Assembly: GCF_901538355.1 (NCBI RefSeq)
Contig: NZ_LR593887.1
Span: 620,001 to 684,000, forward strand
Source: Tuwongella immobilis
Lineage (GTDB): Bacteria; Planctomycetota; Planctomycetia; Gemmatales; Gemmataceae
Direction of reading: 5' to 3'
Length of the DNA stretch: 64,000 bases
The position numbers and the translations under genes are program-made. The notes under the pieces were generated by a model. The model ran no database searches, had not been told where the DNA came from, and saw nothing but the letters and a program-made list of their open reading frames with translations. Of this stretch, positions 1 to 33,766 are shown piece after piece. Position 1 is the first letter of the stretch. Each line of letters begins with the position of its first letter.

Positions 1-1888
1 GCGGCTGGTGTCCGCCCTGGCCATCGGGCACGGCCACCGCCGCGAACTGGTGTTCTTCCACCATGCCGAACTTAATGCCGGTGTCCGCTTCGATTTCCTT
101 CTGCAAGTTCTCCGCGAACTCCTCGTAGCTCTCCGTGGCGACCACCGTGAGCGTGTTTGTCTCGAAGCCCCGGATGCGGTTGCCGGTTTGATCGACGCAT
201 AGCCGAAGCCCCCGGCCGATGGTCTGCCGGCGTTCACGCTCCGTGCCCATCTCGCGGATGGCACAAATCTGGAAGACGTTCGGGTTGTCCCAGCCTTCAC
301 GAAGTGCCGAGTGGCTAAAGATGAACTTCAGCTTCGTCTCGAAGCTCAGCAACTTCTCCTTGTCGCGCATGATCAGGCTGTAGGCCCGCTCTGCGTTCTC
401 GCGGTTGCCGACGTTGTTCTCGGCCGTGTTCTGAACCACACCTTTCTTGTCGATGGAGAAATAACCGTCATGAACCTCGGTGGCCGTACTCGTCGCGTCG
501 ATTCCCTCAAAGAGAATCTTGTAGTTCGGGTGCTTCACGAGGTTCGCATATTCTTCTTCGAAGATATGGGCGTATTCTCCTTTCTGCGGGTTGCCCTCGG
601 CGTCGTACAAGCGATACTTCGCTACTTCGTCGATGAAGAAAAGGCTCAGGACCTTGATTCCCTGCGGGCGAAGCTGGAGTTCCTTGTCGAGATGCTCTTT
701 GATTGTTCTGCGAATCATCTGCCGCTTGAGAGCGGTTTGATCTACATCGCCGATGGCTTCGTGCAGTTTCAAATAGTGCTGCTCACCTGGTGCATGGACT
801 TCCACATACTCCGCGTCTTTCTTCGCGCTGATCTCGCCGATGCGGTAGTTGTTGTAAATCGCCCGGCCGGTGAGTTGCTCCAGGTCTTCGCCGCCGGACA
901 CCTGCTCGAGCTTCCGCGACACCGTTTTCCCCTGCGGTTTGTCGAGTTCCAGTGTGGCGACCGGCGGTCTACCCTTCGCGGTCTTGATTGACACCACACG
1001 TACATACGGCTTGTTGTGCCCGTCTTCCACTTCCAGCGATGCTACCTCGATCTGTTTCACCAACTTCCGCTGATACGCATCGACGGCGTCGAGCCGATAG
1101 ACCATCGCGTGCTTATCGATGTGCGTGGCGGAATAGCGGAGCGTGCAGAGCGGGTGCATACCGTCGAGCGCTTCTTTGCCGCGACCGTCGAGGCCGCCGT
1201 CCACGCTTTGCGGTTCATCGACGATGATGATGGGCCGCGTCGCTTGGATCAGGTCGATCGGCTTTTCATCGTTGATATCCTCGTGTGACTTATAGAGGTT
1301 GTTCAAGTCCTTCTTGTTGATCGCGCCGACAGTCACGACCATCACTTGCAGCTGCGGGCTTGTGGCGAAGTTCCGCACCTGGCCCAGCTTCGACGAATCG
1401 TAGATGAAGTAGTTGTTCCCCTTCGAGAACGGCACGTTCCCGTACAGGCCGCGAAAGTGGTCTTCGGTGATTTCCAGCGTCTTGAACACGCCTTCCTTGA
1501 TGGCGACGCTCGGCACGACGATGACGAACTTCGTGAAGCCGTAATCGCGGTTCAGTTGGAAGATGGTGCGGAGGTAGACGTAAGTTTTGCCAGTGCCGGT
1601 TTCCATCTCCACGGTGAAGTTGTATTTGCTCGGCTCCAGTTCCTCGGTCGGCTTGAGACCGTGGCGCAGTTGCACGTCCCGCAGGTTCGCCAGCAGTTCC
1701 GTATCGAGCAATTGCAGGCGATTGCCGATGCCGAGGTCGCTGTTGTCGTCCGCGAAAAGCGAGTTCGGGTCGCGCGGCATCGTGACCGTGAACTCCGTCC
1801 GGCAGACTTCCTGACCGCGAAACAGGTCGCAGACCGCATTGACCGCGGCGGCCTGATAATCGAGGTTGCTTTCAAAGTGGAGCTTCAT
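1..1888 (-). CDS. Type III restriction enzyme, Res (helicase/endonuclease) subunit, cut by the window edge
   Basis: The frame opens with ATG at 1888 and stays open to the left edge, so about 629 N-terminal residues are visible and the C-terminal endonuclease part is missing. An SF2 helicase core is clear: motif I TGTGKT near residue 97, a DEPQ form of motif II near residue 220, motif V region HSALREGWDNPNVFQ near 530 and motif VI RRQTIGRGLRL. The order and spelling match Res subunits of type III restriction enzymes, which translocate on or switch along DNA and cut when complexed with Mod. The gene starts 7 bp after the mod stop codon, so the two are surely co-transcribed. The visible frame is intact. 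Confidence 0.93.
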   Translation of the reverse strand, partial: MKLHFESNLDYQAAAVNAVCDLFRGQEVCRTEFTVTMPRDPNSLFADDNSDLGIGNRLQLLDTELLANLRDVQLRHGLKPTEELEPSKYNFTVEMETGTGKTYVYLRTIFQLNRDYGFTKFVIVVPSVAIKEGVFKTLEITEDHFRGLYGNVPFSKGNNYFIYDSSKLGQVRNFATSPQLQVMVVTVGAINKKDLNNLYKSHEDINDEKPIDLIQATRPIIIVDEPQSVDGGLDGRGKEALDGMHPLCTLRYSATHIDKHAMVYRLDAVDAYQRKLVKQIEVASLEVEDGHNKPYVRVVSIKTAKGRPPVATLELDKPQGKTVSRKLEQVSGGEDLEQLTGRAIYNNYRIGEISAKKDAEYVEVHAPGEQHYLKLHEAIGDVDQTALKRQMIRRTIKEHLDKELQLRPQGIKVLSLFFIDEVAKYRLYDAEGNPQKGEYAHIFEEEYANLVKHPNYKILFEGIDATSTATEVHDGYFSIDKKGVVQNTAENNVGNRENAERAYSLIMRDKEKLLSFETKLKFIFSHSALREGWDNPNVFQICAIREMGTERERRQTIGRGLRLCVDQTGNRIRGFETNTLTVVATESYEEFAENLQKEIEADTGIKFGMVEEHQFAAVAVPDGQGGHQP

Positions 1889-1895
1889 GACGACC

Positions 1896-3830
1896 TCACA
1901 GGCTGCGAACATTCGTCAGCCCGTGTTGGGCGAGAATGGCCGTCAGGTTGGTTTTTCCGATATCGTCCTCAAAGGCGCTATCTCGGAAGACGGCTTGCGA
2001 ATCACCGGCCGGAGCGAGCGCCTTGTGCCACTCCACAATACCCAGAGCCAGCTCTTCGACTTGCTTCGTGGTGATTTTCTCATCGAGGCAGACAAGTAAC
2101 ACACCACCACCGACGCTATGCACCACCTTGTCAGCGATGGTCTTCGTTTCGATGGGCACGCAAAGGTCGAGGCCGAGTTTCAGCAGCAGTTCAGTGAGGA
2201 TGTCATCAGGTGTGCGGCCATCCTTGATGTGTTCCACAGAATTCCAGACCGTCCCTTCCAGATCGTCTGGCTTAGGGTCCCACGGCCGGATGTTAGATGA
2301 ATCGAGCTTGTAGACGCGGAAGCCGATATCTCCCGCGAACATTGGGGTTTCTGCTTTCACCTTCTTCCCGGCTCGGCGGAGACGCTCTTTCGTCAGTTCT
2401 GCAATATTGAGAGGCTTGCCTAGTGTTTTGCAAAACTCCGCTGCCGTTTTTTGATCGTCGGCGCTTGGATTGAGTGGCTCTGGAAGTTGAACCAGTATAA
2501 ATCTCCTATTACCCACCTCCGCGTTTAGTGCCATCACAGCATGGCCCGTGGTTCCAGATCCCGCGAAGAAATCAAGGATAATGTCATCTCGTTCTGACGA
2601 TCCTGCTTGAACCAGTAACTCTGTGATTAAGCTCATGGGCTTTGCGTAAACGAAGATCTTTTCTCCGAACAACTCCTTGACGATCTTTGTGCCTTCTGAG
2701 GTATGACCAGAAGTAAGTGATTTTACGCTGCCATTCTGTTCGTCACGCATCGAGTTCGGATTGATCCAAGATGAGACGGGTTGAACTATGGATTTGGCTT
2801 CGTTCTTGAATCTCTTCAGTAAGGGAGTGCCATCTTTCCTTCCGGGAAATATGATGCGATTCTCGGCAATTTTCCTCGCCATCGTTTCTCGGCTATAAGG
2901 CCAGAATCGGCCTTTGGGTGGCCAATATTCAAAGCCCGTCTGTGGGTCTTTGATCGGGTAAAATGTGTCGCCACCGGGTTTGGCTGCACTCAAATTGTCG
3001 GCAATCCAATCTCCGCGAGAGTCGCCATCCGAATTACTGTATTTTTCAAACGTTCTCGCCTCTCCAGCAAGCGAGATTGATGTTCGTGAAAAGCAGACGA
3101 TATATTCGTGATCAGTACTCACATTGTTTACTGAATCCATCGCACCAGTGCGTCTCTTCCATACGAAAACTACTAACGAATTCTCTTCACCAAAGACTTC
3201 ACTCATGATTTCATGGAGTCTTGCAAACTCATGATCATCGATGCTGACCGCAATGATTCCATCTTCCCGCAGCAGATTCCTTGCTAGTTTCAAACGAGGA
3301 TACATCATGTTGAGCCAGTTCGTGTGAAAACGACCGCCCGCTTCGGAATTGGTGGTCAGACGGTTACCAGTATCGTCGATATCACCAATTGTCCGTTGGT
3401 AATTGCCAATACTGTCACGGAAATCATCCTTATACACGAAGTCGCCACCGGTGTTGTACGGTGGGTCTATGTAGATGAGCTTCACCTTGCCACTGTAGCT
3501 CTTCTGAAGCAGCTTCAGTACTTCAAGATTGTCCCCCTCAATCACGATGTTACGTGTAGTTTCCCAATCAACACTGTCGTCCAACACTGGGCGTAGGGTC
3601 CCCATGCTGGGGGTCAGTGCGAGTTGCCTGGCCGCTCGCTTGCCGTGCCAGTTGAGTCCATATTTCTCGTCCGGCTCAGCAACGCTGCCACCCAACATCT
3701 GTTTCAAGACGTCGAAGTCTACCTTCCCTTCATTGAATACTTCAGGGAACAGCTCTCGCAGGATAGCGATGTTGTTGGCCACAGAATCTTGCGATTTGCT
3801 CTGCGGGTCTGCAACAGTAAGCGGCTTCAT
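1896..3830 (-). CDS. Type III DNA-methyltransferase (adenine-specific), Mod subunit
   Basis: This 644-residue protein has the two signature motifs of a beta-class N6-adenine methyltransferase in the expected order: DPPY at about residues 122-125 inside IYIDPPYNTGGD, and the SAM-binding FFAGSGTTGH at about 421-430. The roughly 200 residues between them would include the target-recognition region. Mod provides sequence specificity and protects host DNA; with Res it forms the type III restriction complex. The ATG at 3830 is preceded by AAGG about 8 bases upstream. The gene lies directly before res and downstream of the small ORF, in a minus-strand operon. The recognition sequence cannot be read from the protein. 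Confidence 0.95.
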   Translation of the reverse strand: MKPLTVADPQSKSQDSVANNIAILRELFPEVFNEGKVDFDVLKQMLGGSVAEPDEKYGLNWHGKRAARQLALTPSMGTLRPVLDDSVDWETTRNIVIEGDNLEVLKLLQKSYSGKVKLIYIDPPYNTGGDFVYKDDFRDSIGNYQRTIGDIDDTGNRLTTNSEAGGRFHTNWLNMMYPRLKLARNLLREDGIIAVSIDDHEFARLHEIMSEVFGEENSLVVFVWKRRTGAMDSVNNVSTDHEYIVCFSRTSISLAGEARTFEKYSNSDGDSRGDWIADNLSAAKPGGDTFYPIKDPQTGFEYWPPKGRFWPYSRETMARKIAENRIIFPGRKDGTPLLKRFKNEAKSIVQPVSSWINPNSMRDEQNGSVKSLTSGHTSEGTKIVKELFGEKIFVYAKPMSLITELLVQAGSSERDDIILDFFAGSGTTGHAVMALNAEVGNRRFILVQLPEPLNPSADDQKTAAEFCKTLGKPLNIAELTKERLRRAGKKVKAETPMFAGDIGFRVYKLDSSNIRPWDPKPDDLEGTVWNSVEHIKDGRTPDDILTELLLKLGLDLCVPIETKTIADKVVHSVGGGVLLVCLDEKITTKQVEELALGIVEWHKALAPAGDSQAVFRDSAFEDDIGKTNLTAILAQHGLTNVRSL

Positions 3831-3908
3831 ATGGGTGGCCTTATCGTCGAGTATGCATGATAAACCAATAAGCCAAGCTGTGAATGCTCTGCAGGCATAG
3901 TGACTCGG

Positions 3909-4235
3909 TTACAATCGAAATCCATGGTTTACCAACACCCAAAACAGTTCGACACTATCTATACGATACGCGAATTGGTCATACAGGTAGCCAGACGTTC
4001 GTGGCCCCTGAACGTGATATCCAAGCCCTTGCAAATGTGCGACTTGTTCGGGAGTGCCATTGAAGTAGATTCTCCCTTCAAGACCAAATTTGTTTGGCTG
4101 GGTTTGGTATCTTGTTGGGGTGACTCCCGTGATCTCCTGGTATCGAGCTAAGAAGTCCTGGATCCTGGAGGCAGCCACTTCCACTTCGAGGTGAACATCC
4201 GAAGCAGCAAGGGCACTAAATACAGTCATTGGCAT
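3909..4235 (-). CDS. Small unknown protein inside the restriction-modification operon
   Basis: I do not recognise this 108-residue protein. The start at 4235 is preferred over longer in-frame starts, which would overlap the preceding DUF4391 gene, because GAGGAG lies 7 bases before this ATG. There is no signal peptide or membrane segment. The N-terminus begins MPMTVFSALAASDV, and the middle is rich in aromatic, glutamine and asparagine residues (RYQTQPNKFGLEGRIYFNG). It lies 34 bp after the DUF4391 stop and 78 bp before mod, on the same strand, so it is probably translated with the operon. A role as an accessory or specificity factor is possible but rests only on position. Confidence 0.6.
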   Translation of the reverse strand: MPMTVFSALAASDVHLEVEVAASRIQDFLARYQEITGVTPTRYQTQPNKFGLEGRIYFNGTPEQVAHLQGLGYHVQGPRTSGYLYDQFAYRIDSVELFWVLVNHGFRL

Positions 4236-4269
4236 GTTTGATCTCCTCAGTTGTAGGTAGGGCACCACA

Positions 4270-5037
4270 TCATTCACCGTCCTCATTTCCCAATCGGGCC
4301 GCGTGCCGGGTCCGTTCGGCTTGCAGCCGGCGAAGTTCAAGGTTGAACTCCACCCGGCGATTCACTTGTGTCGCCTTTTCCGCGTTCGAGCGAATCGCGG
4401 CGATTTCCCCATCGATTCGGGCGATTTCCCACAGCGATTGCCGCCGCACTTCGTTGGCTTCTCGAGATGAAGCGAGTGCAAACGTGCCGGTGTGCCGGGC
4501 CACATCGAGCGCGGTCATGCGGTCGAGCCAACCCTGATAGAGAACGAAGAGGTTCTCTTTCGGCAACCCGGCCAGCGCCAGGCTGGCAAGGAACGCGGTG
4601 CCGACCGCATCGGGTGGAACGCTGCTTGAGACAATTCTACCTTCGAGAACCATCTTCGACGAGTCATTTTCCGCTTGTCGCAGGTGCGATAATGAGAGCG
4701 TCACCCCGTCGTCATCGATAGTCATCAGCACGAGCGGGTAGGGAATCGCCCGGTGAACCAGTTCCCGCAATCGTTGAGCCTTGGCATTTCGACGCAAAGA
4801 AAGAGTTAGTACCGCAATCTCAAGATATTGTCGCGTTGAATCTTCAAACGCCGAAACGCCAACAGTCGATGGCTTCAATGCTGCGATCCAAATTAGGTCT
4901 TCAACGCCATCGGTAATGGCCTTTTTGTCTTGAGCAGTCACAGCCCCATGGTCGATCAAGTATTTCTTCGGCACCCGTTGATCGACGCGAGAATGGCTTG
5001 GTAAATCGAGTGCGGAGACTAGATCTTCGGCATTCAT
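4270..5037 (-). CDS. DUF4391 domain protein
   Basis: A 255-residue soluble protein. The N-terminal part (KYLIDHGAVTAQDKKAITDGVEDLIWIAAL) and the following VSAFEDSTRQYLEIAVLTLSL segment resemble the DUF4391 family, whose members are usually found beside helicase and methylase genes of restriction-like loci. The C-terminal third is charged and probably forms a coiled coil, ending with many Arg and Glu residues. Its ATG at 5037 overlaps the stop of the helicase gene by 4 bp, so the two are translationally coupled. Biochemical function is unknown; an adaptor between the helicase and the Mod/Res complex would fit the context. Confidence 0.75.
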   Translation of the reverse strand: MNAEDLVSALDLPSHSRVDQRVPKKYLIDHGAVTAQDKKAITDGVEDLIWIAALKPSTVGVSAFEDSTRQYLEIAVLTLSLRRNAKAQRLRELVHRAIPYPLVLMTIDDDGVTLSLSHLRQAENDSSKMVLEGRIVSSSVPPDAVGTAFLASLALAGLPKENLFVLYQGWLDRMTALDVARHTGTFALASSREANEVRRQSLWEIARIDGEIAAIRSNAEKATQVNRRVEFNLELRRLQAERTRHAARLGNEDGE

Positions 5038-8000
5038 GGGGTTTCTCCGTCATGGATGATTGCCACCCATATGACGACTTCGAAGTCGTTTATTCCAGAG
5101 AATTCTCCTTTGCGAGCATATGTGCCGCCCAAGGAAAAGAGGCTCGCGATCTTGCGTTCTTCCTTCCTGCCGATAATTGACGTAACGGCAGCCGAGAGAA
5201 GGTTCTGGTAATGTTCCATTCGCTCGCCTCGGCGTGTCGACTGATCGAATTGCTGACACTGTTTCTCGATTGGCTGCGATCGGCCAGAGCAAAGCCGCTT
5301 GAGTGAGTCAAGAATTGCTCGAGCTTGTGTGAATGGGTTTAATACCTGACCATCATCCGCAATATGTACAAGATAATAGGGTGCTAACGGATAGTTTGGC
5401 TCGGCGGATTTGTCCACAGTTTCACCGGTTGCTCTCAGACAGAAGATCGCGCCAGGGGGAACCACGCCATCGCTCGGGACGACTGCCATGGTCCCAAGTG
5501 GAAAAGTACTCAATTTTTCTCGAACCTGTTTGGGGAGTCGAGCCAAATCCATTCGGAAGTCGTTGAGTGTCAGGTCGGCAATACTAACTCCGCTCGAAAG
5601 GTCTTCAAGATCAATCACGGCGTCTTGCAGTTTCAATAGCTGTTTTCGACGGTACTCTAAATCGTTCATCTGGTTGCCAGAATGCTGCTCGATGACGTTT
5701 TCTTCTCCAGAAGCAGAAATGTCGAGGAGTACCATTCGACCGCTGACTCGTTGCTCAAGATTGATGTACTCTTCTAACTCCATATTCGGCCAAAAATTTA
5801 CGAGCTGGATCTGTTTGTTCGGCGAGCCAATTCGGTCAATCCGACCAAAACGCTGGATGATGCGAACTGGATTCCAATGGATGTCGTAGTTGACGAGAAA
5901 GTCGCAATCCTGAAGGTTTTGTCCTTCCGAGATACAATCCGTGGCAATTAAAAGGTCAATCTCTCCTTCTGAAGCCAACTCAGCGGGGCGCTCCTTCGCT
6001 CGTGGAGCGAATGCAGAAAGAATCGTCGCCATGTCGTTACGGAGCCCTGGTAGCGTTGTCCGATTGCGACCGGAACCGGTGATACTTGCGGTATAAAAAC
6101 CGAGCTCGTTCAATGCCCAATTAGAAAGATGGTGATAAAGGTAATGTACGGTATCACTGAAAGCTGAAAAAATGATTATCTTGCGATTTCCAGCATTCAA
6201 TGGTCTCGTGTGTTTTTGTTTTATGATTTTCTTTAGATCGTTGAGCTTTGCATCTCGATCTGTACTGACTCGTTGAGCCGATTGAACAAGTTCTCTGAGT
6301 CTATCACGGTCCTCAATCAAGTCTTGACGCCAACGAACTCGATCAACATCTTGCAAAAGGACCTTGACTTTCGTGCCGATAAACATGTTTTCAAAGGTTG
6401 GGTCTTCTACATCAAGGTTCTGAATATTGACTTCCTCAATAGTCTCGGCCAACGAGTCGATGCGACTGAGTACGTCTTCAACAGTGTCTAGTTGTCGCTT
6501 AATCGTTAATGCGAATGAGTGGACGGAACTTTCCATTCGTTTCAGTAAATTCACACGTAGCAGGTGTATGAGACTTTCTTCGCGATCCGCTTGACGAAAT
6601 AGTCCTTTGCCGTTTTGTACGGTCTGGCTGTACTTAAGATCGTAAGCTGCTTGTTTCTTGGGAAGTATGTAACGAAGTGGTGCATATGCCCCGAGCTTCA
6701 ATCTGCGAATCTCATCGTTTATTTCGCTAATCGGTCGAAATTCTCTTGAGACATCCACGTCTGATTTGATGTTGATTGGTCGAAGACGCTCGGGGAATTT
6801 GCCGGTCTCTTCGGCATCGTAGTATCTTTCGATATGTTTTCGAGAACGGGCAATCGTCAGCGTGTCGAGGAGATGAAAGTAATCAAAGCCGAGCATATCC
6901 ATTAGTTTTCCAGAACGCCGTTCCGATTCTTCGAGTTGCAACCATCGATTAAACTGGGTTTGAGCGAGGCGAACCGTAGCACCAATATTCGAAATACCGA
7001 TTGATACCAAAGCCTCGTCATTCCCCTCAGTCGCAAATGCGATCTGGTTTTTGAGATCCGCGAGTCGATTATTAACCGGAGTAGCTGAAAGCATCAGCAC
7101 TCTTGTTTTGACACCTTCTTTAATGATCTTCCGCATCAGTTTGTCATACCGGGTTTCCCCGCCAGCGCGAGGTGAATTCTTATTCCGGAAGTTGTGTGAT
7201 TCGTCGATCACAATAAGATCGTAATTTCCCCAGTTGATATGGGCAAGGTCGAGGTCGCCAGATGATCCATTGTCGCGGTTAAGATCAGTATGATTCAAGA
7301 TGTCATAATTAAGGCGGTCGCCTGATAGGATGTTTCTTTTGTCATTGAATTTATAGATTGACCAGTTTTCGCGTAATCGTTTTGGACAAAGAACCAAGAC
7401 GCGTTGATTTCGAAGTTCGTAGTATTTTATGACTGCTAGCGCCTCGAAGGTTTTTCCAAGTCCGACTGAATCTGCGATGATACATCCACCGAAGCGTTCA
7501 AGTTTGTCAATGGCCCCGATCACCCCATCCCGTTGAAATCTGAACAATTTTTTCCAAGTTTGTGAATTTTTGATTCCTGTATCCGATTTCACGATGCGAT
7601 CTTCATCGAGTTCGTCTTCCACTCGAGCAAAGATGTTAGCCAACACAAGATTGTAAATCGTTTCTGGCGCTCGATGCTCGCTAAGTTCACGAATACGCGA
7701 AAGAAGGTTTTGCCTTACTGTGCCGTTCGAAGTGTTCTTCCAAAGTTGCGAAAACCATCCCTCGAGTAAACCAGTTTCTTCGGGGGATTCTGTGTATTGG
7801 ATCAAGCCAAATTGATTACCTGGAGTTAATCCGAAACCGGCAGTTGTAATCGGACAAGTTCCAGTTATTGCGAATCGAATCCCGGACTTTGGCTGTTTGA
7901 CGATAATGATCGATTGTGGAAGAGGAATGATAGTTTGGTGAACTTGGCATTTTTCGGAGATCCAATTCGAGCAAATGTCGGCGAGCCAACGTGATTTGAG

Positions 8001-8231
8001 TTGATTCCTAGATGCTCGGTCTGAATCATTTCCAAGCAACTGAAATCCAGAATTCAATGGATCGGGGATGATCAATCGACATTCTGCAGACTTCGAGATG
8101 AAATCGTGAATCTCCAGGTAAGCAAATAGCGAAAGTTCACTTGAGGCGATATCGACATTCGAATCCGGGAGCAAAATAGAACGAAGGATTTCGAGAACTC
8201 GATCATTCCCACTGTTCTGAACCAGCCTCAT
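5034..8231 (-). CDS. SNF2-type DNA helicase/translocase with N-terminal PLD-like region
   Basis: The frame can begin at a TTG at 8333 (1099 residues), but the ATG at 8231 has a GGGAAT ribosome site at good spacing and is preferred (1065 residues). The N-terminal 200 residues contain KSGIRFAITGTCPITTAGFG, resembling a degenerate phospholipase-D-like fold without a clear HKD motif. The SNF2/SF2 core follows: motif I DSVGLGKT at about 254-261, DESH at about 343-346, LSATPVNN, and the C-terminal lobe with IIQRFGRIDRIG. It heads a five-gene operon with DUF4391, a small ORF, mod and res, suggesting a translocating component of an extended type III-like defence system. The gene is visibly A+T-richer than the chromosome beyond 13.5 kb, in keeping with transfer. 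Confidence 0.88.
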   Translation of the reverse strand: MRLVQNSGNDRVLEILRSILLPDSNVDIASSELSLFAYLEIHDFISKSAECRLIIPDPLNSGFQLLGNDSDRASRNQLKSRWLADICSNWISEKCQVHQTIIPLPQSIIIVKQPKSGIRFAITGTCPITTAGFGLTPGNQFGLIQYTESPEETGLLEGWFSQLWKNTSNGTVRQNLLSRIRELSEHRAPETIYNLVLANIFARVEDELDEDRIVKSDTGIKNSQTWKKLFRFQRDGVIGAIDKLERFGGCIIADSVGLGKTFEALAVIKYYELRNQRVLVLCPKRLRENWSIYKFNDKRNILSGDRLNYDILNHTDLNRDNGSSGDLDLAHINWGNYDLIVIDESHNFRNKNSPRAGGETRYDKLMRKIIKEGVKTRVLMLSATPVNNRLADLKNQIAFATEGNDEALVSIGISNIGATVRLAQTQFNRWLQLEESERRSGKLMDMLGFDYFHLLDTLTIARSRKHIERYYDAEETGKFPERLRPINIKSDVDVSREFRPISEINDEIRRLKLGAYAPLRYILPKKQAAYDLKYSQTVQNGKGLFRQADREESLIHLLRVNLLKRMESSVHSFALTIKRQLDTVEDVLSRIDSLAETIEEVNIQNLDVEDPTFENMFIGTKVKVLLQDVDRVRWRQDLIEDRDRLRELVQSAQRVSTDRDAKLNDLKKIIKQKHTRPLNAGNRKIIIFSAFSDTVHYLYHHLSNWALNELGFYTASITGSGRNRTTLPGLRNDMATILSAFAPRAKERPAELASEGEIDLLIATDCISEGQNLQDCDFLVNYDIHWNPVRIIQRFGRIDRIGSPNKQIQLVNFWPNMELEEYINLEQRVSGRMVLLDISASGEENVIEQHSGNQMNDLEYRRKQLLKLQDAVIDLEDLSSGVSIADLTLNDFRMDLARLPKQVREKLSTFPLGTMAVVPSDGVVPPGAIFCLRATGETVDKSAEPNYPLAPYYLVHIADDGQVLNPFTQARAILDSLKRLCSGRSQPIEKQCQQFDQSTRRGERMEHYQNLLSAAVTSIIGRKEERKIASLFSLGGTYARKGEFSGINDFEVVIWVAIIHDGETP

Positions 8232-8356
8232 GTTCGGATTCCCGCAACTGACATTCATTCGTAACAACAAATACAACCAAGTCTTGCCGTTTTGTTGGCA
8301 GATCCATTCGTTTGTTCTTGTCGCTAAAGTCAATCCACTATCACCAGCAATATCAG

Positions 8357-8384
8357 GTTATAAGTATATCCAGTTACTGGTCAA
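8357..8384 (-). promoter_or_regulatory. Putative promoter with embedded operator for the restriction-modification operon
   Basis: Read on the minus strand there is TTGACC at 8384-8379, a 16-base spacer and TATAAC at 8362-8357, upstream of the helicase gene. The spacer begins with the perfect palindrome CCAGT-T-ACTGG at 8370-8380, which overlaps the -35 box and is well placed for a repressor. The assignment is by eye and untested. Confidence 0.45.
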
Positions 8385-8854
8385 GTGAGTATCAATTCTG
8401 AAAATTTTTCTTTGGTTTGTGCTTCTCATTGGAACCAGGGCAAAAGATCAATCTGATTTATGAATTTAGCTCTTATGTCAATGGTGGTGAAGTGGCCCCC
8501 AATGCGTTGCCCCTCTTGTCACCTTCGACTGCCGCCAAAGCGACATTCGAATTAAACTCCGGCAAATGTCGCTGCCGTTTTTCGCAATCGATTCACCCCT
8601 CTCGGTCACCGGATTTTGTAGTTTAGCCGGTGGTCCGGTTTTCGGAGGCTATTTTAGGATCGGTCCAAGGAAGTTGAGCGGTGCGGAGATCGTCGGTGAG
8701 ATCCGCGTGAATCCAAATACCATGGTGAGCCGGAATCGGGTTGTGGTAAGACGTGGTGGCGTTTTCTGACGGGCCATCGTGAATCCACAACTTGCCGCGG
8801 GGAGGTGCTTTGGCTGGAGCATCGGACTGCGGTTACTCGACATGGGACTCGAAG
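8385..8854. other. Intergenic region without a convincing gene
   Basis: This stretch lies between the divergent restriction operon and the plus-strand genes of the element. The left part is A+T-rich and the right part more G+C-rich, giving a visible composition step near 8480. Short frames exist but none has a ribosome site plus a recognisable product. A piece at 8502-8580 could encode a broken zinc-ribbon-like fragment (RCPSCHLRLPP, then after a frame shift GKCRCRF), too short to call. It may hold a promoter for the gene at 8855, but I could not pick clear boxes. Confidence 0.5.
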
Positions 8855-9613
8855 ATGCAAGATCGGATCCAGGAGCTTCTCAATCGACCGATCCACGACC
8901 GCAACGGTGTCATTCGCTGGGCAGCCGAGGTTGCGTTCATGCTGCGAGAATTCCGCATGCTCCTTCTGGGAGAGCAATTGGAGTTGCAGAAACGCTTAAA
9001 CGACCTGGCGATTTGGTATCTGTCTCCGGCCATTGCGAAACATTGTCCGCCCGTCACGTTTGCGACAAGTGTTCCGTTTGACTTTATAAACCAGCATCCC
9101 AAACCGCCTGTCGAGCATTTGTATCACCACTACTGCGATCTGCTCGCATCGCTCGATCTTGTCGCAAATCAGCCGAAATCTGCTGCAGCCGACCCCCCAA
9201 CGGTGCCAATTCCCGCGCTGGATTCGATCCAACCGAAACGATCCAAACCCGTGCGAAATCGCTTGTCGGCGGCTGAGACCAATCAACGGGTAAGCGAGTG
9301 GCTGTGTGAGAATGCAAAAGGGAATCTTCAAGCGATCAGTTCCCAGCAAATTGCGGACGCGATTGGGGCGTCGAAGGCGGCCGTGATTGCGTCAAAAGTG
9401 TGGAAATTGTTTCATCAAGGAAGACTCTCCACTTGTCCGCCCAAAAAGCGGGAAGTACCGCTGACCGATCAGATGATGGCAACGATTCACCAGCGAGAAT
9501 CAAAGACCCCGGATGAGTTGGTCGCGGAGAAGGAATTGGAACAGCTGACGAAGCAACAAGCCGATGAGATGCGACGGGATCGCCGAACTCCACGTCGTGC
9601 GAAACACGTCTAG
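8855..9613 (+). CDS. Unknown protein of the integrative element
   Basis: The protein has 252 residues from the ATG at 8855 (MQDRIQELLNRPIHD), preceded by GGGACTCGAAG. A longer in-frame start at 8792 is a TTG with no support. The first 120 residues look helical and soluble. A proline-rich linker follows, and then NLQAISSQQIADAIGASKAAVIASKVWK, which has the pattern of a winged or simple helix-turn-helix. The C-terminus is strongly charged and ends RRDRRTPRRAKHV. It precedes the AlpA-like and RepA-like genes on the same strand. I do not recognise the family; a DNA-binding role in element maintenance is an inference from the HTH-like segment and neighbours. Confidence 0.6.
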   Translation: MQDRIQELLNRPIHDRNGVIRWAAEVAFMLREFRMLLLGEQLELQKRLNDLAIWYLSPAIAKHCPPVTFATSVPFDFINQHPKPPVEHLYHHYCDLLASLDLVANQPKSAAADPPTVPIPALDSIQPKRSKPVRNRLSAAETNQRVSEWLCENAKGNLQAISSQQIADAIGASKAAVIASKVWKLFHQGRLSTCPPKKREVPLTDQMMATIHQRESKTPDELVAEKELEQLTKQQADEMRRDRRTPRRAKHV

Positions 9614-9768
9614 CCAAACGCGGCGGTCATGACCGAGGAACCGACTGGTCATGACCGCATTGTCGTTTTTTCTTCATACTCCACAACGACTTACGACAGA
9701 TCCTTGTGACCGCTTCGGATGGTGTACGGTGCGATTGCGTCGTGCCGAACTCCACGAGGAACCGAGCG

Positions 9769-9972
9769 ATGTCGAAGCGAACCAATTCACATCCGACGAA
9801 CGAACTGGCCGAGTCGCATTTTTTCTGGTTGTCGGTCCTTCGAGCCGCTCGAGGGATTGACGATGTTTTCTTGGAAGAATTCGCCTTACGCCGATTGCGA
9901 GAACTGGGAACCCGAGTTGTCTTCGATTGCGAATCGAAGTCGGAACCTTCGAGCCACGAGGGAAATCGATGA
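9769..9972 (+). CDS. Small unknown protein coupled to the AlpA-like gene
   Basis: A 67-residue frame starts at ATG 9769 (MSKRTNSHPTNELAESHFFW), with GAGGAA 8 bases upstream. Its stop codon overlaps the next start in an ATGA arrangement at 9969-9972, the main reason for accepting it as real. The middle is a leucine- and arginine-rich helix (LRAARGIDDVFLEEFALRRLREL). No known domain is recognised. It may be a small accessory factor translated with the excisionase-like protein. Confidence 0.5.
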   Translation: MSKRTNSHPTNELAESHFFWLSVLRAARGIDDVFLEEFALRRLRELGTRVVFDCESKSEPSSHEGNR

Positions 9973-10214
9973 ATTTTCCCGACCATCATTCGACCGAGCG
10001 ACCTGAACCCGAGTTGCTGGTGGATGCGAAGCGTGTTGCGGATTTGCTCGCAGTATCCCTTCGCACCGTCCGCAAAATGGATTCTTCGGGGAAACTCCCA
10101 CGCCCGGTACGCATTAGCGGAGTCGTTCGTTGGTCCATCGAAGAACTTCGTGCCTGGATCGACGGTGGTGCGCCAAACCGAACCGAATGGGAAGCGCGAA
10201 GACGAAAAAAATAA
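9969..10214 (+). CDS. AlpA/excisionase-like helix-turn-helix protein
   Basis: An 81-residue protein whose core LLVDAKRVADLLAVSLRTVRK, followed by LPRPVRISGVVRWSIEELRAWID, is the standard pattern of the MerR-like HTH_17 family that includes AlpA and phage excisionases. The second strand-helix WSIEELRAWI is typical. The start at 9969 is supported by GAGGGAAAT upstream and by the 4-bp overlap with the preceding small gene. In integrative elements such proteins act as recombination directionality factors or regulators of the integrase. The tyrosine recombinase 1.5 kb downstream is the natural partner, though this is inferred. Confidence 0.85.
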   Translation: MNFPDHHSTERPEPELLVDAKRVADLLAVSLRTVRKMDSSGKLPRPVRISGVVRWSIEELRAWIDGGAPNRTEWEARRRKK

Positions 10215-10346
10215 CCGCGTGAAATTCCGCATCCTCGAGATTCAACGGGATGCGTTTGGGAATGAGTTGATTCGTTATTTCGCCTGGGAGTTGGAGAGTT
10301 CGACTCTCAACTCGAGAACCATCATCAGGCTTCACGAGTGACCTTC

Positions 10347-11477
10347 ATGAATTCGAACAAGCCGTTCTCTGGAAAGTCCGAGACGACGTTAGATCTCATT
10401 TGTATGGCCAATGTCGAGCCAACCGAAGTCGCTTGGTTGTGGAAGGATCGAATCCCGATGGGACGAATTACTGTCCTTTCCGGGCGACCAGGTTGTGGAA
10501 AGACATTCTTGACGATGTTTCTTGCTGCGACGGTGACCCGTGGCGGTGATTGGCCGGATGGTCGGGGGACAGCTCCGCAGGGATCCGTGTTGATTCTCAA
10601 CGCCGAGGATGATCCGAACGACACGCTTTCACCTCGACTTTTTGCAGCGAATGCGGACATGCAGAAAGTCCATCTCCTGAAAGGTGTCACGGTGAAGCAA
10701 AAGGATGGGAACAGTTCTCAGCTCGCTGTTGATCTGACGAATGTTGACAAGATTCAAGAAGCGATTCGTCAACTTGAGGATTGTCGGTTATGCGTGATTG
10801 ATCCCATTGGGAGTTATCTCGGCCACAATGTCGATTCCCATCGAGATAATGAGGTTCGGAGTGTGCTCACTCCGCTTGGAAATCTTGCCAATGAACTCGA
10901 AGTGGCGGTTCTGATGGTCTGCCATAATCGAAAGGCGGCTTCCGATTTTGCGGATGATAGTGTCCTTGGATCTCGAGGCTTTACCGGGATCGCTCGTGCC
11001 GCTTGGCATTTGTATTCCGATCAGAACGATCCATCGAAATCGAGAAAACTGCTGCTCCCTGGAAAAAATAATCTGGCCGAGAATCAATTTGGTTTAGCGT
11101 TCCGGATCGAGAAATCAGAAATTGGAACCCCAATCCTGCGATGGGAAGACGGCGATGTTCAGCAGTCTGCAGACGATTATGTCGCTGCAAAACCAACGGA
11201 CCGGAAGAAACGTGGACCGGAGCCATCCAAGCGAGTTGAGTGTATGCGTTGGCTCGCTCAGCAATTAGCGGCCGGCCCCGTCGAAGCGAAGACGATTGAG
11301 ATCCGAGCAAGTGAAGCGGGATATACTTGGAAGACGGTCAGAAATGCGTATCAATGCCTGGGAGTTCAATCGATCAAAGCGAGCGGACCAAACGGATCTT
11401 GGAGTTGGCGATTGCCCACGGTTGAAGATGAACTTGCCTCGGAACACGATGTAAGTTGCCCAAGTATCGAGGAATAA
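10347..11477 (+). CDS. RepA-like AAA ATPase (hexameric helicase type)
   Basis: About 376 residues. Motif A GRPGCGKT lies near residue 46-53 and a Walker B-type strand LCVIDPIGSYLG about 100 residues later. NAEDDPNDTLSPRLFAA and VCHNRKAASDFADDSVLGSRGFTGIAR are hallmarks of the AAA_25/RepA family of RecA-fold ATPases. Family members include replicative helicases of small plasmids and ATPases common in integrative elements. The C-terminal 100 residues look like a winged-helix segment. A GTG at 10338 is an alternative start. The gene follows the AlpA-like gene by 132 bp. The role is probably replication or maintenance of the excised element. Confidence 0.82.
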   Translation: MNSNKPFSGKSETTLDLICMANVEPTEVAWLWKDRIPMGRITVLSGRPGCGKTFLTMFLAATVTRGGDWPDGRGTAPQGSVLILNAEDDPNDTLSPRLFAANADMQKVHLLKGVTVKQKDGNSSQLAVDLTNVDKIQEAIRQLEDCRLCVIDPIGSYLGHNVDSHRDNEVRSVLTPLGNLANELEVAVLMVCHNRKAASDFADDSVLGSRGFTGIARAAWHLYSDQNDPSKSRKLLLPGKNNLAENQFGLAFRIEKSEIGTPILRWEDGDVQQSADDYVAAKPTDRKKRGPEPSKRVECMRWLAQQLAAGPVEAKTIEIRASEAGYTWKTVRNAYQCLGVQSIKASGPNGSWSWRLPTVEDELASEHDVSCPSIEE

Positions 11478-11566
11478 GGGCAACATCGGTAAATTTGCGG
11501 GAATTCGTTGCGGAAATCCCTCGGAAATCAGAAGTTGCCCCAGTTTCGAGTGACTTGGGCAACTTC
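11453..11566. repeat. Two related inverted repeats after the RepA-like gene
   Basis: Two copies of a similar imperfect palindrome lie about 80 bp apart. Copy 1 has AAGTTGCCC at 11453-11461 and GGGCAAC at 11478-11484, spanning the stop codon of the ATPase gene. Copy 2 has GAAGTTGCCC at 11531-11540 and GGGCAACTTC at 11557-11566, a 10-bp perfect stem. Both share AGT-TCGAG in the loop. They may be binding sites for an element protein (replication initiator, recombinase arm sites) or a terminator-like structure; no U-tract follows either one. Confidence 0.55.
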
Positions 11567-11603
11567 GTCGATTCAAGCGATTCAAACCAGGGCATGTTGA
11601 TGG

Positions 11604-11632
11604 TTGTCACTCTTTCTGATCTAAAATAGTAT
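11604..11632 (+). promoter_or_regulatory. Putative promoter of the integrase gene
   Basis: TTGTCA at 11604-11609 and TAGTAT at 11627-11632 are separated by exactly 17 bases and lie about 130 bp before the integrase start. This is close to the sigma-70 consensus. The identification is by eye only. Confidence 0.5.
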
Positions 11633-11759
11633 GCATTTTGCAGTCCTGTTCCAAGATCGGACCCATTTCGATTGACTGATTCGATGATTGGAGCACGGAT
11701 CCCAACCCAACTGGAATTACCAAGAGATCACTGGCAGGTTCTCAACCAGGAATTCATGG

Positions 11760-13484
<1,725 letters not shown>

Positions 13485-14425: not shown

Positions 14426-14479
14426 TCGGCCTGCGGTGGGTTACTGACCTGCCGCGGTGATTCGCCGGAAGTTCGCCAA

Positions 14480-14529
14480 GCCGCGGGTGAGAATTCCTTC
14501 GGGAGTCCTCACCCGCGGCTGTTTTTTTT
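14480..14529 (+). terminator. Rho-independent terminator after the BON gene
   Basis: A perfect 12-bp stem, GCCGCGGGTGAG at 14480-14491 with CTCACCCGCGGC at 14508-14519, is followed by TG and eight T residues. Confidence 0.92.
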
Positions 14530-30731: not shown

Positions 30732-30761
30732 AATCGCAGGACACCCGTCCTGCGATTTTTT
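30732..30761 (+). terminator. Rho-independent terminator after tRNA-Val
   Basis: An 11-bp perfect stem, AATCGCAGGAC at 30732-30742 with GTCCTGCGATT at 30747-30757, has a four-base loop and ends in six T residues, just downstream of the tRNA. Confidence 0.9.
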
Positions 30762-30903
30762 CGTTTTCCGATGCAGGTATCATTTCCAAGACAATCCCGG
30801 CTCGACCGATCGTGGGCGGAATCGTAAAAATCGTTTGGGCAGTTTTGGCCCTCGGTGGCGGTACTCGTTTCGGATCACCAACTTGGATGTTGAGGGATGG
30901 TCA

Positions 30904-31353
30904 ATGCCTTGGATCATCTTATCGATCAGTCTGGCGGTGTTGATGGGTGGTGTGTGGCTGATCGTGCTCACCTCTCGACGATATGGATTTCAACAGGCCG
31001 GTCAGAATATCTTCTCGCGAGCCGGTGCCCTGCTCACCGCCGGTGTGATGTTCATCATGGCTGGGTTGATTGCGGGATTATTCTCGATCTTCATCCTGCT
31101 GGCGGCTGCCGATCTGCGTCAAACCTGGAACGATGAGTTAACGAAGATGTTTGGTCGACCGCCAGACCGACTTGAACTCGACGATCCATACGCGGGCAGT
31201 TTGAGCGGCAGCAAGGGCTTGGCCTGGTTCGGTTCGGACTGCTACGAAATCCAATGCAAGGGCTCCAAGCTGATCCGCCGCGACGGCAAAGATTGGCGCG
31301 AATACGATCTCACCGCCACCCCAATCCCCATCCCCGAACTCCGCCGCGAATGA
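30904..31353 (+). CDS. Small membrane protein whose 3' end is duplicated
   Basis: The protein has 149 residues from ATG 30904 (GAGGGATGGTCA before it). Two membrane helices, at about 2-22 and 38-66, are followed by a soluble tail ending DLTATPIPIPELRRE. No family is recognised. The last 23 codons, the stop codon and two further bases form one copy of a 71-bp direct repeat, whose second copy lies at 33696-33766 beyond the RT insert. The gene itself is intact, so the insert sits directly after its stop codon without destroying it. Confidence 0.72.
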   Translation: MPWIILSISLAVLMGGVWLIVLTSRRYGFQQAGQNIFSRAGALLTAGVMFIMAGLIAGLFSIFILLAAADLRQTWNDELTKMFGRPPDRLELDDPYAGSLSGSKGLAWFGSDCYEIQCKGSKLIRRDGKDWREYDLTATPIPIPELRRE

Positions 31354-31355
31354 GG
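31285..31355 (+). repeat. 71-bp perfect direct repeat, left copy
   Basis: Starts GGCAAAGATTGGCGCG and ends with GCGAATGAGG. It covers the 3' end of the membrane-protein gene including its stop codon. Base-by-base comparison with 33696-33766 shows no difference over 71 positions. The flanking bases differ on both sides. Confidence 0.97.
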
Positions 31356-31470
31356 TCTTGCGGCAGTTATCGCTGCCCATAACGAACGACTTCGCAGGCT
31401 GTCTGGTGAGTTGATCGCTTCGAGATTGCCTTCGCATGTTCGACGGTCTATGATTGTTTTTACCAATGGA

Positions 31471-31514
31471 AATAACGAACAATTTCCGATTGACGGTATT
31501 GTTTAAGCGTTGTT
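31471..31514 (+). other. Bulged hairpin near the left end of the RT insert
   Basis: AATAACGAACAAT at 31471-31483 can pair with ATTGTT (31498-31503) plus CGTTGTT (31508-31514), leaving the four bases TAAG bulged and a 14-base loop. This gives 13 pairs including one G-U. The nine bases ATAACGAAC inside the stem also occur at 31379-31387, close to the boundary of the insert. It may be a recombination site or part of an RNA. Confidence 0.45.
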
Positions 31515-31769
31515 GTTAGTCACGGCTACTTGAAACAGACATTCATTTGGAGAGAACGGTATCAATCTTGGCTTCCGGATGGGATGTTGCATTTTTAGGG
31601 TAAGTCCGCATGAATAACAGACTGTCGCAAACCCTGAAGGGGCTATGGTCCGATCGTTCGGCAAAGATCAACTAGTTCAGATGGTTATGTTTTGTATTTA
31701 GTTATACTTTAATCGTAGTGCAGTTTGTTCTGGATGCTTCAGTGAGACAACGCCAAATCGTTATCATGG

Positions 31770-31938
31770 GAAAGCTGTTGGATTTGCATCATGCTTTCAT
31801 CTTTTGTGAATCAATTACGTCATACAAATACTGCATCGAGGTTCGGCAGTTGTCTAATTCTTCGCGAAATTAGACAACTGCTATTCGCTCATCGACAATA
31901 ATGCAGAATGGAATCCCGCAACCTCGTAGAAATTGTCG
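31770..31938 (+). ncRNA. Candidate structured RNA upstream of the reverse transcriptase
   Basis: Several pairings fall in the non-coding DNA before the RT gene. GAAAGC/GCTTTC is at 31770-31775 and 31793-31798. A perfect 14-bp stem, GCAGTTGTCTAATT at 31846-31859 with its complement at 31868-31881, has loop CTTCGCGA. CGACAAT/ATTGTCG is at 31893-31899 and 31932-31938. In addition CGAGGTT at 31837-31843 can pair with AACCTCG at 31920-31926 inside the last loop, which would make a pseudoknot. A TATACT box at 31703-31708 might start the transcript. Defence RTs such as DRT2 and DRT9, and retrons, use an RNA encoded just upstream as template or cofactor. Boundaries are guesses. Confidence 0.45.
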
Positions 31939-32012
31939 GGGGGCTCTGTAACGGAAGCTGATATTCGGCGAGTTGGGAATGCTGTAACATAAGCAAATGA
32001 GAGGGGATATAA

Positions 32013-33521
32013 ATGACCGAGACGACTCAGGTGGGCGATCTAAATGCTGTAGATCGCTCGGTTCTCGAAATGAGCTCGGCCGAGGCAAGAAAGTTCTTTC
32101 TAAAATCTGAGAGCTATTGTAATATTGGGTTGCCCAGTTATATTGATTTTTGCGGTATTCTTAGTTCGGCTAATGATGCTCTCTTAGACAAGAATTCGTT
32201 TGATGTGTGTCAAAAAGCCAAAGATTGTGATGATGTGAATTATACAATTGTCTCAAATAAGGATGGTCGATATGCTTGGAGGCCTTTTCAACTAATCCAT
32301 CCCGTGATTTATATTGCTTTGGTTGATACTATTACTCGGGAAGATAACTGGTTGATGATCGGTAATCGATTTAAGCAGTTGCAGTCGAAATACATTGAGT
32401 GTCTGAGCCTGCCACGAGAAGCCGCAGGAAGAAAAAAAGACAAAGCTGCTCAGATTACATTTTGGTGGCAACAAATCGAGCAAAAATCAATTGAGCTTGC
32501 ACTTGAGTATAATTATGTGTTCTTTGCGGATATAACGGATTGTTATGCGTCGATCTATACGCATTCAATTGCCTGGGCAATGCATGGAAAACCTTTTGCA
32601 AAGAAAAATCGACGGGATAATCGGCTGATAGGAAATGCTATCGATGTTCTTCTCCAGAATATGCGGTATGGACAGACGAATGGTATTGCTCAAGGCTCAG
32701 TTTTAATGGATTTTGTATCTGAAATTGTCTTGGCATATGCAGATAATCAGTTGGAAGAGGAACTGAAAAGCAATGGAGTAGTCAAGTATAAGATACTTCG
32801 GTATAGGGATGATTATCGTTGTTTTGTCGATAATCCCCAAACTGGGGAAGTGATTCTCAAAGCATTGACAAAAGTTCTTATTGATCTTGGGCTTAAGTTA
32901 AACACGAATAAAACAACAAATTCTGAATCAATCATCTCTTCAGTGATTAAGCCTGATAAGCTCAAATGGATGCGGTCGCGTCAGTATTCTGAGGATATGC
33001 AGAAGAATCTTTTGTTAATTCATGAACATGGAGTTGAGTTTCCCAATGCAGGAAGTGTGACTAAAGCACTTGTTGATCTCCATGAACGAATTTACTCTGC
33101 GGAATCGATCACTAGCCCATTGGTTTTAATTAGTGTAGTTGTTGATATTGCTGTGACAAGTCCGCATTGTTTTCCAGTTTGTGCTGGAATATTGAGTAAA
33201 CTGCTTAGTGTTCTTGATAGAGATAGCACTCGACTGGAAGTTATGGAGAAAATTAAAAATCGAATGCGGCAGTTTCCGAATACAGGTCATATGGAGATAT
33301 GGCTGCAACGAGTTAGCTATCCGATTTGTCAAAATTCAGATTATCAGGAGTCTATTTGTCGCATTGTCAAGAAAGAGTCTGTGTGTCTGTGGGGAAATGA
33401 TTGGATTACAGATTCAAATTTGAAATCATCAATTGATCCCGCCTTGATTGTGAATCACGTAGAATTAGATGGAATGAATAGAATCATTGTTCCAAGAGAA
33501 ATTAATCTTTTCTTCTATTAA
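32013..33521 (+). CDS. Reverse transcriptase of the unknown/defence-associated group
   Basis: The protein has 502 residues, with ATG at 32013 after GAGGGG. RT motifs are in order: an N-terminal segment AWRPFQLIHPVIY at about 88-100, motif A FADITDCY with Asp173, motif B GIAQGS at 224-229, motif C YRDD at 264-267 and motif D LGLKLNTNKT at 292-301. The remaining 200 residues are a helical C-terminal region without maturase, HNH or integrase features, as in Abi/UG/DRT reverse transcriptases. It lacks the NAxxH and VTG features expected of retron RTs. It stands alone in the A+T-rich insert, after a structured non-coding region. An antiphage role is plausible; the subgroup cannot be fixed by eye. 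Confidence 0.88.
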   Translation: MTETTQVGDLNAVDRSVLEMSSAEARKFFLKSESYCNIGLPSYIDFCGILSSANDALLDKNSFDVCQKAKDCDDVNYTIVSNKDGRYAWRPFQLIHPVIYIALVDTITREDNWLMIGNRFKQLQSKYIECLSLPREAAGRKKDKAAQITFWWQQIEQKSIELALEYNYVFFADITDCYASIYTHSIAWAMHGKPFAKKNRRDNRLIGNAIDVLLQNMRYGQTNGIAQGSVLMDFVSEIVLAYADNQLEEELKSNGVVKYKILRYRDDYRCFVDNPQTGEVILKALTKVLIDLGLKLNTNKTTNSESIISSVIKPDKLKWMRSRQYSEDMQKNLLLIHEHGVEFPNAGSVTKALVDLHERIYSAESITSPLVLISVVVDIAVTSPHCFPVCAGILSKLLSVLDRDSTRLEVMEKIKNRMRQFPNTGHMEIWLQRVSYPICQNSDYQESICRIVKKESVCLWGNDWITDSNLKSSIDPALIVNHVELDGMNRIIVPREINLFFY

Positions 33522-33695
33522 ACTGAATTGGTGTCTTGGTTACTTAATTAACATGGAATGATGACAGAAACTACACTCTTTGTTTTTATCGAAGTTGTGT
33601 CTCTTGCCACACTGGAACCTCAAATCTTGGTCACCGCTTATAGACCAGCGATGCTAGGTCGGAGCCGGGGGGCTACCGCAGGGGCAATGTTGCCT
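33522..33695 (+). other. 3' flank of the RT gene with clustered hairpins
   Basis: No gene is supported here. Near the right boundary there are three adjacent stem-loops: GACC/GGTC at 33643-33660; CGGAGCC pairing with GGCT-A-CCG at 33660-33678 around a GGGG loop; and GGCA/TGCC at 33683-33694. The last ends 1 bp before the second copy of the 71-bp repeat. They are G+C-rich in contrast to the rest of the insert. Confidence 0.45.
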
Positions 33696-33766
33696 GGCAA
33701 AGATTGGCGCGAATACGATCTCACCGCCACCCCAATCCCCATCCCCGAACTCCGCCGCGAATGAGG
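33696..33766 (+). repeat. 71-bp perfect direct repeat, right copy (fragment of the membrane-protein gene)
   Basis: Identical to 31285-31355. It reads as the last 22 codons and stop of the membrane-protein gene, without the rest of the gene, so it is a duplicated 3' fragment. The short frame that runs into it from the insert is not considered a gene. After it the sequence returns to the G+C content of the chromosome. Confidence 0.97.

What the first reader, a model, noticed from the sequence alone, without database searches (positions are those of the whole stretch)
31356..33695. Reverse transcriptase with a structured non-coding RNA candidate: possible undescribed defence system
A lone RT of the UG/DRT type (YRDD at motif C, helical C-terminus, no maturase) is preceded by about 650 bp of non-coding DNA. 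This holds a 14-bp perfect hairpin (31846-31881), a 7-bp stem (31893-31938), a 6-bp stem (31770-31798) and a possible pseudoknot (31837-31843 with 31920-31926). Known defence RTs such as DRT2 and DRT9, and retrons, use an RNA encoded just upstream. The RT here does not show retron marks, so the subgroup is open. The protein and hairpins are seen directly; the RNA role is inferred.
Basis: partly seen in the sequence, partly recalled or inferred. Interest (0 to 1): 0.85.

Follow-up and report, generated by a model that had tools for sequence, protein, structure and literature searches.

The report
Solo AbiP2 phage-defence polymerase, recently inserted
The gene is a lone AbiP2 abortive-infection polymerase, a known family that makes DNA without an RNA template, sitting in a short foreign insert bounded by a perfect 71-bp repeat; the proposed RNA partner is not supported, because part of that stretch looks like the decayed end of a restriction-system gene.

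Summary
The RT is real and intact (32013-33521, 502 aa), but its subgroup is not open. It matches AbiP2 over its full length (PADLOC E 8e-194), its model superposes on solved Abi-P2 7r08 (TM 0.83-0.89), and it keeps YRDD and the tyrosine that primes DNA synthesis in Abi-P2. AbiP2 is described as protein-primed and template-independent, with no RNA partner. The 14-bp hairpin is real, but the other stems are at chance level and the whole region folds no better than shuffles. No relative of the upstream DNA was found; 43 of 92 AbiP2 loci have an ORF ending within 100 nt of the RT. In the window's clade that gene is often hsdS of a type I restriction operon, and 31911-31975 here looks like a decayed hsdS 3' end. 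In seven other loci AbiP2 has an hsdS 3' end upstream and a second one downstream, which hints at a cassette that inserts at gene 3' ends. That reading is unproven; a matched control was not significant.

The parts
30835..31353 (+). resident gene (172 aa, no family, no homologue in 58 relatives) whose 3' end is duplicated around the insert
31285..31355 (+). left copy of the perfect 71-bp direct repeat: last 66 nt plus stop codon of the resident gene plus 2 nt
   Evidence: only two copies in the genome
31356..33695 (+). inserted AT-rich segment (41% GC against 57% for the window) whose only gene is the RT
31846..31881 (.). 14-bp perfect hairpin / near-palindrome, role unknown (no T run after it, not conserved)
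31911..31975 (+). probable decayed 3' end of an hsdS gene (ESRNLVEI / frameshift / RGAL*RKLIFGEL, against QSRTLAALRDTLLPKLISGEL)
   Evidence: the genome has no intact HsdS
32013..33521 (+). AbiP2 abortive-infection polymerase (502 aa)
32139..32141 (+). codon of Tyr43, aligned with the DNA-priming Tyr61 of Abi-P2; Tyr in all 122 loci with that region
32802..32813 (+). codons of the YRDD catalytic motif (residues 264-267)
33696..33766 (+). right copy of the 71-bp direct repeat (gene remnant without a start)

Best explanation
The locus is a stand-alone AbiP2 gene in a 2.34-kb horizontally acquired insert at the 3' end of a resident gene. By homology, the protein forms an oligomer and, on phage infection, attaches the first nucleotide to its own Tyr43 and polymerises single-stranded DNA without template or RNA partner, leading to abortive infection. 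The 659 nt upstream is not a conserved RNA partner. It holds what looks like a decayed hsdS 3' end, because this AbiP2 lineage often sits right behind hsdS in type I restriction operons and this copy seems to have left such an operon. Shown by sequence: family, residues, predicted fold, insert borders. Strongly suggested: hsdS relic. Inferred from the family: biochemical mechanism and anti-phage role. Unknown: what made the 71-bp duplication, and what the 14-bp hairpin does.
For: PADLOC AbiP2 E 8.4e-194 over 4-484/489, next family Drt6 E 2.5e-51. Best PDB sequence match 7r08 E 1.9e-80. Model pLDDT 91, top six Foldseek hits all Abi-P2 7r08, TM 0.83-0.89. RDD of motif C conserved in 123/123 loci and Tyr43 in 122/122 that cover it; Tyr61 priming from PMC9508834. 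The RT lies in a supported 23-row AbiP2 clade, 9 of whose loci have hsdS directly upstream; hsdS/hsdR identities by Pfam. hsdS 3'-end profile: best hit in the whole window at 31946-31982, correct strand and spacing; frameshift-tolerant score 21.9, 0 of 1500 shuffles, above every locus without hsdS and below clear relics, three of them in the window's own clade. Genome holds no HsdS or HsdR. Perfect 71-bp repeats and GC step.
Against: No expression or phage data. The hsdS relic is short and frameshifted, and its margin over the best controls is small (21.9 against 20.8-21.6). An hsdR relic was sought downstream and not found (12.6, 196 of 500 shuffles as good). About 550 nt of the left flank stays unexplained. 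The empty site could not be found in relatives.
Confidence: 0.85

Rival explanations
1. RT plus upstream structured ncRNA works as in DRT2/DRT9/DRT10: the RNA binds the RT and templates or regulates DNA synthesis.
For: A strong 14-bp hairpin and 659 nt of DNA without a large same-strand ORF in front of the RT.
Against: The RT is AbiP2, whose family is reported to synthesise DNA without an RNA template. 36 of 92 loci have a same-strand ORF of at least 200 aa ending within 60 nt, and 43 within 100 nt. No homologue of the upstream region was found. Region z -0.73. The 3' part looks like an hsdS relic.
Confidence: 0.04
2. On how the insert arose: the 71-bp repeats are attL/attR of a site-specific integrative element whose integrase acts in trans or was lost (a cis-mobilizable or remnant island), with AbiP2 as cargo.
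For: Perfect repeats at a gene 3' end that leave the gene intact, a classical integration pattern; foreign GC; the genome codes several integrases.
Against: No integrase in the insert; the repeat has no third copy in the genome; no dyad typical of a core site was seen by eye.
Confidence: 0.4
3. On how the insert arose: AbiP2 travels as a small cassette that recombines into gene 3' ends, mostly the conserved hsdS 3' end, duplicating 50-78 bp of the target; the window is one such event at another gene.
For: Second hsdS 3' end directly behind abiP2 in L035, L036, L047, L053, L082, L088 and L004. hsdS-side breakpoints lie within about 12 codons, and hsdR-start/hsdS-end fusions in L036, L082, L088 and, permuted, in L034 fit a circle closed between hsdR and hsdS.
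Against: In a non-redundant set, repeats flank 5 of 91 AbiP2 genes against 1 of 79 other ORFs (Fisher p 0.22). Several contigs are MAG fragments. The window insert has no hsdR relic and its repeat is not hsdS. Decay of tandem hsdS genes could leave similar scraps.
Confidence: 0.3
4. The gene is a silent relic: an intact ORF in decaying foreign DNA, no longer expressed.
For: The upstream flank looks decayed; promoter-like matches are at chance.
Against: 502 codons without a lesion and the family-conserved residues kept; perfect repeats point to a recent event.
Confidence: 0.15

Closest known systems
Abi-P2 of prophage P2-EC30 (ORF570, PDB 7r08)
   Same: Full-length homologue (33% identity), same predicted two-domain fold, YRDD, priming tyrosine in LPxY.
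   Different: Carried by a P2-like prophage, not by a 2.34-kb insert; the stretch conserved upstream of the P2-type genes is unrelated to the window's.
AbiP2 genes inside type I restriction operons (e.g. L030, L031, L036, L037, L039-L041)
   Same: Closest relatives by sequence (about 52-57%) and clade.
   Different: Those follow an intact hsdS by 18-51 nt and several precede hsdR; here hsdS is a relic and hsdR is absent.
AbiK and AbiA (Lactococcus)
   Same: Same mechanistic class: protein-primed, template-independent polymerases.
   Different: Much weaker similarity (AbiK E 1e-30; TM about 0.53); AbiA has a C-terminal HEPN domain.
DRT2, DRT9, DRT10 (class 2 UG RTs)
   Same: Defence RTs of the wider UG family.
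   Different: They work with an ncRNA encoded next to the RT; no such RNA is supported here.
Cis-mobilizable and remnant integrative elements
   Same: Direct repeats at a gene 3' end, cargo only, no integrase.
   Different: Very small (2.34 kb); no related integrase or att site known.

Membership tests
AbiP2 (UG/Abi class 1 RT) | Full-length match to the family profile, far above sister families | tested here: met
   E 8.4e-194, 4-484/489; next family 2.5e-51
AbiP2 (UG/Abi class 1 RT) | RT-like domain plus family-specific helical domain | tested here: met
   AF2 model pLDDT 91; 7r08 TM 0.83-0.89
AbiP2 (UG/Abi class 1 RT) | YxDD active site and N-terminal priming tyrosine (Tyr61) | tested here: met
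   Y264-D267; Tyr43 aligns with Tyr61
AbiP2 (UG/Abi class 1 RT) | Trimer; [quoted passage not shown] phage exclusion | not testable with these tools
   reported for Abi-P2 in PMC9508834 and PMC11077055; inferred here
DRT2/DRT9-type ncRNA system | Conserved structured ncRNA next to the RT | tested here: not met
   no homologous upstream DNA; region z -0.73; many relatives have no room
DRT2/DRT9-type ncRNA system | RT of that subfamily | tested here: not met
   Drt2 NCBIfam 27 bits against cut-off 390
Retron | Retron RT | tested here: not met
   the one retron model that matched scores 25 bits against cut-off 235
Retron | msr/msd RNA | tested here: inconclusive
   no Rfam match, but Rfam may lack most retron RNAs
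Group II intron | Maturase RT and intron RNA | tested here: not met
   48 bits against cut-off 300; no Rfam match
Integrative (cis-mobilizable) element | Direct repeats at a gene 3' end around foreign DNA | tested here: met
   71/71 bp, GC 41%
Integrative (cis-mobilizable) element | Integrase recognising these sites; excised circle; empty site | tested here: inconclusive
   no integrase inside, no third att copy; no empty site in relatives

The most novel reading that the evidence does not exclude
AbiP2 genes move as tiny cassettes without a dedicated integrase: they leave type I restriction operons, perhaps as circles closed between the hsdR 5' and hsdS 3' ends, and insert at gene 3' ends (mostly hsdS) with a 50-78 bp duplication; the window shows a recent insertion at a non-hsdS gene.
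Probability: 0.3. Interest if true: 0.65.

Novelty: new member of a known kind. Interest (0 to 1): 0.36.

Why it matters
It settles the subgroup and removes a false ncRNA lead. It also warns that 'non-coding DNA in front of a defence RT' can be the scar of a neighbouring gene. The recurring hsdS scars and duplicated gene ends around AbiP2 make a testable case for how a one-gene defence system spreads between restriction loci and out of them; I found no description of this in the papers that could be searched.

Tried and rejected
(1) Covariance model for 31700-32012: not possible, no homologous upstream sequence. (2) hsdR relic behind the RT: read by eye in 33627-33698, tested and rejected (196 of 500 shuffles as good). 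(3) DGR (variable/template repeat): rejected because the two 71-bp copies are identical and the RT is not a DGR RT. (4) Integron attC at the left edge: looked for by eye, no matching arm pair. (5) Hairpin as intrinsic terminator: no T run, not listed by the scan. (6) Hairpin as a dispersed repeat: unique in the genome, absent from viral contigs. (7) Empty site by synteny: the resident gene and the GNAT gene beyond the insert have no clear orthologues in 58 relatives. (8) Enrichment of flanking repeats around AbiP2 against other ORFs: not significant (p 0.22).

Full report
Observation. The RT ORF 32013-33521 (502 aa) is intact, single-copy in the 6.69-Mb genome and preceded by 659 nt without a large same-strand ORF. 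The 14-bp hairpin 31846-31881 is exact, folds far better than shuffles (z -6.0) and is the longest perfect hairpin in the window. The other stems do not exceed chance and the region 31700-32012 as a whole has z -0.73. Rfam finds only two tRNAs in the window.

What the RT is. PADLOC assigns it to AbiP2 over its full length (E 8.4e-194; next Drt6 at 2.5e-51). The best solved sequence is Abi-P2 7r08 (E 1.9e-80) and the predicted structure (pLDDT 91) matches the six 7r08 chains first (TM 0.83-0.89). Retron, group II and Drt2 models score far below their cut-offs. In Abi-P2, Tyr61 primes DNA synthesis (PMC9508834); the alignment places Tyr43 there, and it is tyrosine in all 122 loci that cover it, while the RDD of motif C is kept in 123 of 123. 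Abi RTs are reported to make DNA by protein priming without an RNA template (PMC11077055, PMC12632851, PMC12483538).

Is there an RNA partner? I collected 80 AbiP2 loci from genomes and 32 from viral contigs, plus plasmid, phage and phylum hits. In a non-redundant set of 92 loci, 36 have a same-strand ORF of at least 200 aa ending within 60 nt of the RT match and 43 within 100 nt; these are mechanical ORFs, but among those checked Pfam names five of eight upstream ones as HsdS, one as a glycosyltransferase and one as an enolase-like enzyme. The window's upstream DNA has no significant relative among these loci, in plasmids or phages or in 391 other genomes of the phylum. Outside the P2-type loci, most of the upstream similarity between AbiP2 loci lies in the hsdS gene, above all its 3' end.

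The hsdS relic. nhmmer gave one weak hit of the window's upstream DNA, in L062, exactly at its hsdS 3' end. A profile of 23 hsdS 3' ends finds its best hit in the entire window at 31946-31982 (E 0.024 for both strands of 64 kb), on the right strand and at the expected distance from the RT. A frameshift-tolerant protein profile scores 21.9 (ESRNLVEI, frameshift, RGAL*RKLIFGEL), reached by 0 of 150, 0 of 122 and 0 of 1500 controls, though the best controls come close. It forms the low end of a series: intact hsdS 50-90, detached or broken copies in L004, L060, L044, L057 and L034, then the window, then everything else at or below 17.9. L044, L057 and L034 are in the window's own 23-row clade. 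The genome has no HsdS or HsdR of its own, so the relic most likely came with the insert. The second arm of the proposed pseudoknot and part of the 7-bp stem lie in this relic.

The insert. The segment 31356-33695 (41% GC, window 57%) lies between perfect 71-bp repeats: the last 66 nt and stop codon of ORF 30835-31353 plus 2 nt, and a second copy at 33696-33766. The repeat has no third copy. There is no integrase inside. The resident gene has no homologue in 58 relatives, so no empty site could be shown.

A wider pattern, suggestive only. In L036, L047, L053, L082, L088, L035 and L004 a second hsdS 3' end follows abiP2. The hsdS-side breakpoints fall in one short zone (SRTLxxLRDTLLPKL). In L036, L082 and L088 the second copy is fused behind an hsdR start; in L034 an hsdR start is fused to the hsdS end in front of abiP2 and another hsdR start follows further downstream. 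Sister locus L081 has intact hsdR where L082 has the fusion. This is what insertion of a circle closed between hsdR and hsdS would leave, but a matched control for flanking repeats was not significant (5 of 91 against 1 of 79, p 0.22), so I hold it as a hypothesis. Whether the window's 71-bp repeat arose in the same way is open.

Verdict. A new member of the known AbiP2 family in a small recent insert; the ncRNA reading is not supported. The interest lies in the insert and the hsdS scars, not in a new RNA-guided system.

Noticed in passing
window 1-13484 (island begins about 1.5 kb before the window): A roughly 15-kb genomic island seems to end in tRNA-Arg 13398-13472: integrase 11688-13484 (+), type III methyltransferase 1896-3830 (-), DUF4391 protein 4270-5037 (-), helicase 5034-8333 (-); a 46-bp, 96% copy of part of the tRNA lies at genome position 618472-618517.
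   Followed up: partly
L036, L082, L088, L034: Fusions between the start of hsdR and the end of hsdS next to abiP2, in two permuted orders.
   Followed up: partly
L028:3968-5600: The AbiP2 closest to the window by sequence sits about 30 nt behind a glycosyltransferase gene and is followed by a 23-residue scrap of an hsdR start.
   Followed up: partly
L006 and L051, upstream of the RT: Two divergent AbiP2 genes (46% identical) follow the same gene 3' end (79% identical DNA over 259 nt), as if that gene end were a repeated target.
   Followed up: no
L119-L132, L139, about 230 nt upstream of the RT: P2-type prophage AbiP2 genes share a conserved stretch of about 200 nt upstream (around 75% or more), unrelated to the window; part may be coding. 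An RNA there was not tested.
   Followed up: no
L106:13-139 and 2645-2770: A 127-bp repeat (79% identical) with attC-like ends (TAACA.GCGC ... AACGTTA) brackets AbiP2 and neighbours; perhaps an integron cassette.
   Followed up: no
window 14479-14520, 9623-9658, 30732-30757: Other perfect hairpins of 11-13 bp in the window, so strong hairpins are not peculiar to the RT locus.
   Followed up: no
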